From a virus: a stretch of 31,529 bases of DNA. The notes beneath the pieces are model-generated. The model was not told where the DNA came from. It saw nothing but the letters and a program-made list of their open reading frames with translations, and searched no databases. Position 1 is the first letter of the stretch. Each line of letters starts with the position of its first letter. A program made the position numbers and the translations under genes. Shown piece by piece: positions 21,346-25,896 of this stretch. Location of the stretch: positions 1 to 31,529 of IMG/VR virus record IMGVR_UViG_3300032116_000877; one strand, given 5' to 3'.

Positions 21346-21737
21346 CGCAGGAACAGCGGGCCTACTCTCGGTCTCCCGCTGGTCAGTCGTTCGGACGGCT
21401 GACAATCAATCCTGACCGTGCCTGTCGCCCCCGATGAAAACAAATCCACGCGCTGTCAGCCTACAACGTGGTCGGTCGTTTTGGGGAGTCGATGGGGAGC
21501 TACACGGGGTGATGACGGCCCCGCAGGTCACCGGTCGAAGGGGTTCTACCTGTGCCGGGGTAGACACGCAGACCGCCCCACCGTCAGCCTTCCGCCCACC
21601 ATCTGTCCCCATCCCGCCTTACGACCGGGAATGGCCCCGGCATATCCGATATTGCACCGCGTCACGCCTTTGCGTATCGTTCTACCGCAAGCTCCCCGCT
21701 CTCCGTGTCGGGGGATACTGAAGCCTCGGGACTTGCC
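21346..21737 (+). other. Intergenic stretch without a convincing gene
   Basis: About 390 bases lie between the nuclease gene and a terminator. Two open readings exist (from 21418 and from 21434) but both are Pro/Arg/Ser-rich, lack ribosome sites and overlap each other in different frames, so I do not call genes. What is visible is structure. GTCAGTCGT and ACGGCTGAC (21382-21403) form a 9-bp stem with one wobble and a TCGG tetraloop. AGCGGG (21355-21360) can pair with CCCGCT (21375-21380). A CCCCCGA near 21429 is complementary to TCGGGGG near 21709. It may be a long untranslated RNA ending at the terminator, a replication origin, or a decayed gene. Confidence 0.4.
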
Positions 21738-21775
21738 AAGCCCGTCACTCCTGACCGAGTGGCGGGTTTGTTTTT
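21738..21775 (+). terminator. Rho-independent terminator
   Basis: AAGCCCGTCACT (21738-21749) pairs with AGTGGCGGGTTT (21758-21769), 12 pairs including two wobbles, around an 8-base loop CCTGACCG. GTTTTT follows at once. The T-tract lies on the + strand side only. It closes the upstream transcription unit a few bases before the promoter that begins the next one. Confidence 0.85.
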
Positions 21776-21778
21776 GAG

Positions 21779-21813
21779 GGCTATTGACAGACTTCCGGTA
21801 TTGGCATTACTCT
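21779..21813 (+). promoter_or_regulatory. Sigma-70-type phage promoter
   Basis: TTGACA (21784-21789) is a perfect -35 inside the 14-mer GGCTATTGACAGAC. A fair -10, TACTCT (21808-21813), follows with an 18-base spacer. The only other copy of the 14-mer is at 25367-25380, also around a -35. The promoter sits between a terminator and the gene at 21842, whose CGGAG ribosome site lies about 10 bases before ATG. Recognition by host RNA polymerase is inferred. Confidence 0.65.
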
Positions 21814-21841
21814 ATTGGCACCCCCCTCACACGGAGACCCT

Positions 21842-22087
21842 ATGGAAACGGTCGGTTGCCCCACGTGCGGTTTGCCAATGCAGGTGAGCGTCTACTACTC
21901 GCCGCCTGACCCGTCGGTCGGTTTGTCGCATGACTACGAGGTCTATATCGAGGAGGCCGAGTGCGACCACGAACTGACCGACAAGCAACACGAAGAACTC
22001 TTTGAAGAACTCTGGGACCGCAAAGAGGAAGCCAAAGCCGCGCACTACGAGGATGACCGCTACGCCCGAGGCTACGATGACCTCTGA
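21842..22087 (+). CDS. Small acidic zinc-knuckle protein, first gene of an operon
   Basis: The product has 81 residues from ATG 21842, with CGGAG upstream. It starts METVGCPTCGLPMQ, a Cys-x2-Cys knuckle, and a later AECDHELTDKQ may supply further ligands. The second half is a strongly acidic helix (HEELFEELWDRKEEAKAAHYEDDRYARGYDDL). It is the first gene after the promoter at 21784, so it is likely to be expressed early. Small acidic early phage proteins often bind and inhibit host enzymes or mimic DNA. That role here is only a suggestion. Confidence 0.65.
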   Translation: METVGCPTCGLPMQVSVYYSPPDPSVGLSHDYEVYIEEAECDHELTDKQHEELFEELWDRKEEAKAAHYEDDRYARGYDDL

Positions 22088-24761: not shown

Positions 24762-25088
24762 ATGCATATGCCAGTTAGCTTTGACACCTTTTGCAAGGCC
24801 AAGCGTCTCCCGATACCCGTGGCGGAGTATCGGTTCCACCCGACCCGCAAATGGCGGATGGACTGGGCGTGGCCCGACCAGAGGGTCGCGCTTGAGATTG
24901 ACGGCGGGGTCTGGGTACGCGGGGCGCACGGGCGCGGGACCGGCATTGTGCGGGACCAAGAGAAGGGGCGGGAGGCGGCGGCATTGGGCTGGCGCATCCT
25001 GCGTTGTCAACCGAAGGAACTCTTTACCGCGTCCGTTATTGACGCACTCACCCGCGCCCTCAAGTGGCGCATCACGGAGGACGAATGA
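24762..25088 (+). CDS. Endonuclease-like protein (DUF559/Vsr-type PD-(D/E)XK)
   Basis: The product has 108 residues. ATG 24762 and ATG 24768 are both possible starts and neither has a strong ribosome site. YRFHPTRKWRMDWAWP (Asp34), VALEIDGGVW (Glu45, Asp47), DQEKGREAAALGWRILR and LFTASVI match the D ... E-x-D core and the helix of the short DUF559/very-short-patch-repair-like endonucleases that phages often carry. It may be a Holliday-junction or repair nuclease. The start region holds the palindrome GCATATGC (24764-24771), seen again at 24652 and 25319. Confidence 0.65.
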   Translation: MHMPVSFDTFCKAKRLPIPVAEYRFHPTRKWRMDWAWPDQRVALEIDGGVWVRGAHGRGTGIVRDQEKGREAAALGWRILRCQPKELFTASVIDALTRALKWRITEDE

Positions 25089-25354
25089 CCGAAGGACCGA
25101 TGACTATCTCACAGGCGGCGGAAGCGTTGGGACTCTCGCGGCAACTGATTCATGCGTGGGTCAAGAAGGGCAAGTTCAATGCGGTGCGAACGATGACCAA
25201 GCGCGGCGTTTGGCTTATCCCGCGATATGAAGTGCAGAAACTCCTCGGCTCACCGGAGTTGGCGTACTCCCTCCGTCGGCGCGGGTTGTTGCTGGGTAAA
25301 CCCAAGCGCAAGCCAGATGCATATGCAACGGATATGCAACCCGTTGCTGGGTAG
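25085..25354 (+). CDS. Helix-turn-helix protein, excisionase / MerR-like
   Basis: The product has 89 residues from an ATGA overlap. MTISQAAEALGLSRQLIHAWVKKGKFNAVRTMTKRGVWLIPRYEVQKLL is the standard excisionase-type DNA-binding domain: two helices, a wing (GVWLIPRYEV) and a helix. A basic tail, RRRGLLLGKPKRKPDA, follows. In the absence of an integrase it is likelier to be a transcription regulator than a recombination factor. The gene ends directly ahead of a promoter, and its last codons contain two near-direct copies of ATATGCAAC, which could be its operators (inference). Confidence 0.75.
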   Translation: MTEGPMTISQAAEALGLSRQLIHAWVKKGKFNAVRTMTKRGVWLIPRYEVQKLLGSPELAYSLRRRGLLLGKPKRKPDAYATDMQPVAG

Positions 25355-25366
25355 GGGTTTAGGTAT

Positions 25367-25399
25367 GGCTATTGACAGACAGGCAAAGGGCTGTATGTT
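25367..25399 (+). promoter_or_regulatory. Promoter for the large RNA element
   Basis: TTGACA (25372-25377) lies inside the 14-mer GGCTATTGACAGAC, identical to the copy at 21779. TATGTT (25394-25399) follows with a 16-base spacer. The expected start is about base 25406, one base ahead of the first stem of the RNA described next. Both the perfect repeat and the fit to the RNA boundary make this a strong promoter call. Confidence 0.7.
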
Positions 25400-25406
25400 T
25401 ATTGGC

Positions 25407-25675
25407 GTAGGGCGTGCTTGAGGGGAGAGACAGAAATCCGAGAGGTGGGAAAGCGGACGCGCAGACCGGAGCCTAAAACCGAGTGCCGAACTGAACCACA
25501 GCACAATGTGCGAACTGGTCCTCTTTAATGGGATAGGCGAAGTCTAGGGCAAACGATTACGCGGAAACGGTACGTACAGCGTGGGTAGGCCGACAAATGA
25601 ACCACGACAAGGCGAGTAGCCGACAACGGGCCGCACCGAAGCCTCGGAGACAGAAACCCCTCAAGCACGACCTAC
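25407..25675 (+). ncRNA. Candidate large structured RNA, about 270 nt
   Basis: The ends pair. GTAGG (25407-25411) pairs with CCTAC (25671-25675). After one G-A mismatch, CGTGCTTGAGGGG (25413-25425) pairs perfectly with CCCCTCAAGCACG (25657-25669), giving 18 pairs. Then comes an internal loop in which both strands carry GACAGAAA (25429-25436 and 25649-25656), then TCCGAG (25437-25442) with CTCGGA (25643-25648). Further in, GGT/ACC and GCGG/CCGC pairs continue. A side arm runs from GCCTA (25471) to TAGGC (25538) with apex GCAC-AAT-GTGC (25501-25511), and ACGC/GCGT pair at 25559/25579. The promoter start site coincides with the 5' end. It may be a free RNA, a leader of the gene at 25702, or a processed transcript. 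No known class (tmRNA, RNase P, 6S, intron) fits by eye. Confidence 0.55.
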
Positions 25676-25701
25676 AACTTACCCCGACACGGAGAATCCA
25701 G

Positions 25702-25896
25702 ATGACCTACGGCTACATCGCTCGCGCTATGCTCAAGAAGCACGGCCTTCGCTTGGCTCGCGTCAAGATTGGCGCTCGGGCGTTCCGCTATGAGTACGTC
25801 TTGCCCGCCATCAAGGGCGGCTACGATGCGCACGACATCGCCCGCGCTACGCTCTGGCACTCGGTCAACCGCGCCCTCGACCGGGTTCCCGAATGA
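25702..25896 (+). CDS. Small basic hypothetical protein, 64 aa
   Basis: I chose ATG 25702 because CGGAGA lies 7 bases upstream and the sequence from there looks protein-like. An in-frame ATG at 25597 would add 35 residues, but it has no ribosome site, lies inside the predicted RNA structure and uses unlike codons. The product is basic with strands and helices (MTYGYIARAMLKKHGLRLARVKIGARAFRYEYVL). No family is recognised. The start choice is uncertain. Confidence 0.55.
   Translation: MTYGYIARAMLKKHGLRLARVKIGARAFRYEYVLPAIKGGYDAHDIARATLWHSVNRALDRVPE

What the first reader, a model, noticed from the sequence alone, without database searches (positions are those of the whole stretch)
25367..25701. 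A promoter followed by a large RNA fold closed by an 18-bp stem
Sequence shows: TTGACA-16-TATGTT, then, starting within a base of the expected transcript start, GTAGG-(G/A mismatch)-CGTGCTTGAGGGG whose exact complement returns about 245 bases later. Inside the stem is an internal loop with the same GACAGAAA on both strands, then a second helix and an inner arm. The element occupies a gap with no gene, in a genome that otherwise wastes no space. Inference: a dedicated phage RNA of about 270 nt, either free or a long leader controlling the gene at 25702. I cannot match it to a known RNA class.
Basis: partly seen in the sequence, partly recalled or inferred. Interest (0 to 1): 0.78.

Follow-up and report, generated by a model that had tools for sequence, protein, structure and literature searches.

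The report
Orphan RNA in phage cargo slot
In one lake phage, the spot just after an early promoter where its relatives carry small protein genes (or nothing) instead holds a roughly 270-base non-coding stretch that would fold into a long-stemmed RNA and has no known relative.

Summary
A promoter (TTGACA-16-TATGTT) is followed, at the expected transcript start, by an 18-of-19 stem (25407-25425/25657-25675) that no local shuffle approached. A 6-bp second helix also holds. The deeper "inner arm" is weak, and the interior folds no better than shuffles. The stretch is non-coding and matches no Rfam family, no phage or plasmid record, and none of about 1,400 genomes sampled.

Related viral contigs (about 30) show what the place is: a variable slot between a conserved promoter and the gene at 25702. 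Relatives carry small, mostly orphan protein genes there, and two carry nothing. Only this virus (window and L007, identical) has the RNA-like element. With no homologue, covariation cannot be tested.

The two GACAGAAA copies directly flank the 6-bp inverted repeat, as 8-bp target-site duplications would flank a 212-bp insertion into a leader hairpin.

Best explanation: a structured RNA cassette at the 5' end of the early transcript (0.45). Rivals: MITE-like insertion (0.28), cis-acting leader (0.17), non-functional remnant (0.10). A riboswitch or attenuator is disfavoured because the ribosome-binding site stays open and there is no terminator.

The parts
25064..25354 (+). upstream HTH_17/MerR-like regulator gene, left border of the slot
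   Evidence: Pfam HTH_17 E 2.6e-10; conserved in relatives at the same place
25372..25399 (+). promoter TTGACA-16-TATGTT
   Evidence: consensus scan; same -35 with 16-17 nt spacing and a -10-like hexamer upstream of the 25702 homologue in 32 other relative loci, many near-duplicates
25407..25425 (+). 5' arm of outer stem P1, starting at the expected transcript start
   Evidence: 18 of 19 pairs with 25657-25675; 0 of 3000 shuffles
25429..25436 (+). GACAGAAA copy 1 (internal-loop strand, or left target-site duplication)
25437..25648 (+). 212-nt interior bounded by TCCGAG/CTCGGA (helix P2, or terminal inverted repeats of an insertion)
   Evidence: pair probability 0.97; nested repeat pattern; AT skew highest in the window for the 231-nt stretch 25426-25656
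25625..25636 (+). AACGGGCCGCAC, identical to the 5' half of the inter-cassette hairpin of close relatives
25649..25656 (+). GACAGAAA copy 2 (internal-loop strand, or right target-site duplication)
25657..25675 (+). 3' arm of outer stem P1
25681..25695 (+). conserved ACCCCGACACGGAGA leader with ribosome-binding site, unpaired or weakly paired in the prediction
   Evidence: repeated before cargo genes and before the 25702 gene in close relatives; unpaired in the fold (apart from a 3-bp hairpin)
25702..25896 (+). 64-aa protein of unknown function, right border of the slot
   Evidence: 87-100% identical in 12 other contigs

Best explanation
A roughly 270-nt structured non-coding RNA cassette occupies the variable slot that close relatives use for small, mostly orphan proteins. 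SHOWN: the slot, the conserved promoter, the absence of coding, the 18-bp stem starting at the expected +1, the second helix, the extreme A-over-T composition, and absence from all relatives held. INFERRED: it is transcribed early; the stem buries the 5' end and both protects and delimits the RNA; the 3' end is made by processing, or the RNA stays attached as the leader of the 25702 operon. Because the slot carries variable accessory genes under the same promoter, the most likely job is of the same kind as theirs, taken to be host takeover or counter-defence, done here by an RNA (for example a decoy that binds a host protein) rather than by a protein. The target is unknown.
For: Promoter and slot are conserved in relatives; the filled slots of the others carry protein cargo and two are empty, L175/L086 and L203. 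The slot here is about one cassette long (302 nt versus 285-300 nt for one-gene slots of the nearest relatives) and has no sense ORF. Stem: 0 of 3000 shuffles. Interior A 32.5%, T 11.3%, the highest AT skew of all 231-nt stretches of the window; slot cargoes in relatives have skews of -0.07 to 0.22, and comparable skews elsewhere in relatives lie mostly in long open frames. A-rich, U-poor sequence suits a structured RNA with unpaired A (general knowledge). The element is present, letter for letter, in a second assembly, L007.
Against: No homologue, so no covariation at all. Interior fold z = +0.23. No terminator to end a free RNA. The twin 8-nt repeats and the 6-bp inverted repeat are explained at least as well by an insertion. 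The function of the protein cargoes is itself unknown. No expression data.
Confidence: 0.45

Rival explanations
1. A 212-bp non-autonomous, MITE-like element (25437-25648) inserted into the loop of a leader hairpin and duplicated 8 bp (GACAGAAA). The 'internal loop' is the target-site duplication and the 'second helix' the terminal inverted repeats.
For: GACAGAAA|TCCGAG...CTCGGA|GACAGAAA is the only such nesting in the window; 0 of 4000 local shuffles and 7 hits in 60 whole-window shuffles. Taking out the insert and one repeat leaves a perfect leader hairpin (-35.8 kcal/mol), and several relatives have a smaller hairpin at that point of the leader. Identical loop strands are otherwise unexplained.
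Against: Inverted repeats of only 6 bp. No second copy in phage or plasmid records, held relatives or about 1,400 sampled genomes. The interior holds the clade's own 12-mer AACGGGCCGCAC, odd for a foreign element.
Confidence: 0.28
2. A cis-acting leader: the 18-bp stem at the 5' end stabilises the early mRNA or tunes the 25702 operon; the interior has no role of its own.
For: Stem starts at the expected +1 and lies directly upstream of the operon with no terminator between. Leaders of several relatives carry a 5' hairpin at the same position, with a paired change GTCGGC/GCCGAC to GTCGGG/CCCGAC in L188.
Against: A hairpin of under 20 nt does for the relatives; 231 extra nt are not needed. The ribosome-binding site is open, so there is no visible switch. 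The nearest relative L086 works with a 36-nt leader.
Confidence: 0.17
3. A non-functional remnant: a decayed or rearranged cargo cassette whose stem is a by-product of rearrangement.
For: About the length of one cassette and holding half of the inter-cassette hairpin. Interior folds no better than chance.
Against: No six-frame similarity to any cargo; extreme strand-specific composition is not that of the cargo genes.
Confidence: 0.1

Closest known systems
GOLLD and ROOL RNAs (PMC12286853)
   Same: Structured non-coding RNAs carried by phages and prophages; function unknown.
   Different: Those are larger (many GOLLD exceed 800 nt), defined by covariation, often near tRNA islands and present in Rfam. 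This one is about 270 nt, has no Rfam match, no tRNA in the window and no homologue.
Racr RNA anti-CRISPRs (PMC10651486)
   Same: A phage accessory function carried by an RNA instead of a protein (if our reading is right).
   Different: Racrs mimic CRISPR repeats as solitary repeat units. This element is far longer and closed by an 18-bp stem; likeness to a host CRISPR repeat was not tested because the host is unknown.
Stable RNAs C and D of phage T4 (from memory)
   Same: Small phage RNAs of unknown function.
   Different: Shorter and in a tRNA cluster (memory only); compared only through the phage-record BLAST, which found nothing significant.
Prokaryotic MITEs (reviewed in PMC10969869)
   Same: Short non-coding stretch with terminal inverted repeats and a flanking direct repeat.
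   Different: Terminal repeats of only 6 bp; no second copy and no parent transposon found.

Membership tests
Any Rfam 15 family (RNase P, tmRNA, 6S, group I/II introns, GOLLD, ROOL, riboswitches) | score at or above the family's gathering threshold | tested here: not met
   no hit on the window at gathering; at E up to 10 with lax filters only a chance 12.7-bit UCA1 hit outside the element
Conserved structured RNA family | homologues with compensatory changes in the helices | tested here: inconclusive
   only identical copies exist; no homologue in relatives
Riboswitch or attenuator leader | expression platform: sequestered ribosome-binding site or terminator | tested here: not met
   GGAGA 25691-25695 not held by the stem; no terminator-like site in the slot
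MITE | terminal inverted repeats flanked by a target-site duplication | tested here: inconclusive
   form present (TCCGAG/CTCGGA flanked by GACAGAAA; 0 of 4000 local shuffles), but the repeats are short and also fit an RNA helix and loop; the empty relatives differ too much in the leader to show a clean unoccupied target
MITE | further copies, or a parent transposon with the same ends | tested here: not met
   no copy in phages, plasmids or sampled genomes; host unknown, so the search is incomplete
Racr | resemblance to a CRISPR repeat of the host | not tested
   host unknown

The most novel reading that the evidence does not exclude
A trans-acting phage RNA of a new family has taken the place of a protein in an early accessory-gene slot and does the same kind of work (counter-defence or host takeover) as a stem-closed decoy RNA.
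Probability: 0.22. Interest if true: 0.75.

Novelty: new variant of a known kind. Interest (0 to 1): 0.42.

Why it matters
If it acts as an RNA, it shows that a phage accessory slot normally filled by small proteins can be filled by a non-coding RNA. Protein-based surveys of such slots would miss this, so catalogues of counter-defence would be incomplete. If it is an insertion, it is a worked example of how an insertion into a leader hairpin's loop can look like a large new RNA, a caution for RNA discovery from single sequences.

Tried and rejected
RNase P resemblance (GAGGGGAG..GAAA and ACAGAAACCC pieces) was considered by eye and dropped: the helices here are nested, unlike P2/P4, and there was no Rfam score even with lax filters. 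Group I/II intron: no Rfam score. K-turn reading of the internal loop: the GA steps are not in the required places (by eye). Coding: no sense ORF and no six-frame similarity. Homologue hunts: twin-GACAGAAA patterns in the viral and genome collections gave only the virus itself and chance hits (checked). The covariance model R1, built from identical sequences, found only the identical copies among relatives. AT skew as evidence was checked against relatives: such skews also occur elsewhere, mostly in long open frames, so it counts only together with the lack of coding.

Full report
What is there. The stem pairs 18 of 19 positions, a value not reached in 3000 local dinucleotide shuffles whose best was 16. 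The second helix of 6 bp is predicted at 0.97 probability, while the inner arm reaches about 0.6. Folded without the stem, the interior is no more stable than its shuffles (z = +0.23). The supported structure is therefore the outer stem, the twin-repeat joint and the 6-bp helix, not a large elaborate fold.

Non-coding. No sense ORF fills the gap. Six-frame translations resemble nothing in the held loci. The ATG at 25597 opens a frame that runs into the gene at 25702, but in relatives homology begins around 25702, behind a conserved GGAGA. Interior composition is A 32.5%, T 11.3%, the highest AT skew of all 231-nt stretches in the window.

Where it sits. The terminase large subunit, the 64-aa protein at 25702 and the protein at 24762 brought in related IMG/VR contigs. 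In 32 relative loci other than L007, many of them near-duplicates, a promoter lies upstream of the 25702 homologue and the space between is a slot. L086/L175, whose 25702 protein is 100% identical, has a 36-nt leader and no insert; L203 is also empty. Flagged cargo frames in the others run from 58 to 269 aa; of five sampled cargo proteins, none had a PHROG match better than E 0.06. L189 and L193 were not flagged by the script's ribosome-binding-site filter, but their leaders run into a start codon and sequence like that of L204's cargo. L112's slot was not assigned a promoter by the script but by eye holds a small frame. Only the window and L007, identical over 7174 bases, carry the RNA-like element.

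Orphan status. No Rfam family. No significant match in phage or plasmid records (a 23-nt Streptomyces phage hit at E 3 is chance). With the covariance model, no match beyond the identical copies in 84 held sources, 32 whole viral contigs and 404 genomes. No BLAST match of the 212-bp interior in 981 further genomes. The host is unknown, so genome sampling was blind, and metagenome contigs could not be scanned.

The second reading. GACAGAAA|TCCGAG...CTCGGA|GACAGAAA is the form of an 8-bp target-site duplication around 6-bp terminal inverted repeats. It is the only such nesting in the window and absent from 4000 local shuffles, though 7 hits arose in 60 whole-window shuffles. Without the insert and one repeat, the leader is a perfect hairpin, and several relatives begin their transcript with a smaller hairpin at the same point. 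Against it: no second copy, very short ends, and inside the insert the 12-mer AACGGGCCGCAC that in close relatives forms the 5' half of the hairpin closing a cassette. That last fact suggests the interior grew at least partly from the phage's own slot.

Mechanism. Shown: slot, promoter, non-coding, stem. Inferred: early transcription, protection of the 5' end by the stem, and a role like that of the protein cargo, whose own function is unknown. The open ribosome-binding site and lack of a terminator speak against a riboswitch or attenuator. The probabilities given for the explanations are judgments, not computed.

Noticed in passing
window 25318-25340: TGCATATGCAACGGATATGCAAC at the end of the HTH gene; the ATATGCA pair recurs at the same place in relatives, including some distant ones (L040, L019). 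Possibly an operator of the HTH protein (inference).
   Followed up: partly
window 21737-21842: Second copy of the promoter context (GGCTATTGACAGAC, 21779-21792) followed by a short leader with ACACGGAGA and a gene start at ATG 21842; a terminator-like hairpin with a T run lies just upstream at 21737-21770.
   Followed up: partly
L087, L090, L092, L096 and distant relatives, between cargo and the next gene: A repeated inter-cassette hairpin (AACGGGCCGCACGGCGCGGCCC; in distant relatives CGGGCCGCGTGGTGCGGCCC) separates cargo from the next gene and is followed by the same ribosome-binding-site leader. It may mark cassette borders or serve recombination.
   Followed up: partly
leaders of L188-L209 after the promoter: A hairpin GTCGGCAATGACGCCGAC sits at the expected transcript start in many distant relatives; L188 has GTCGGG..CCCGAC instead, a paired change.
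   Followed up: partly
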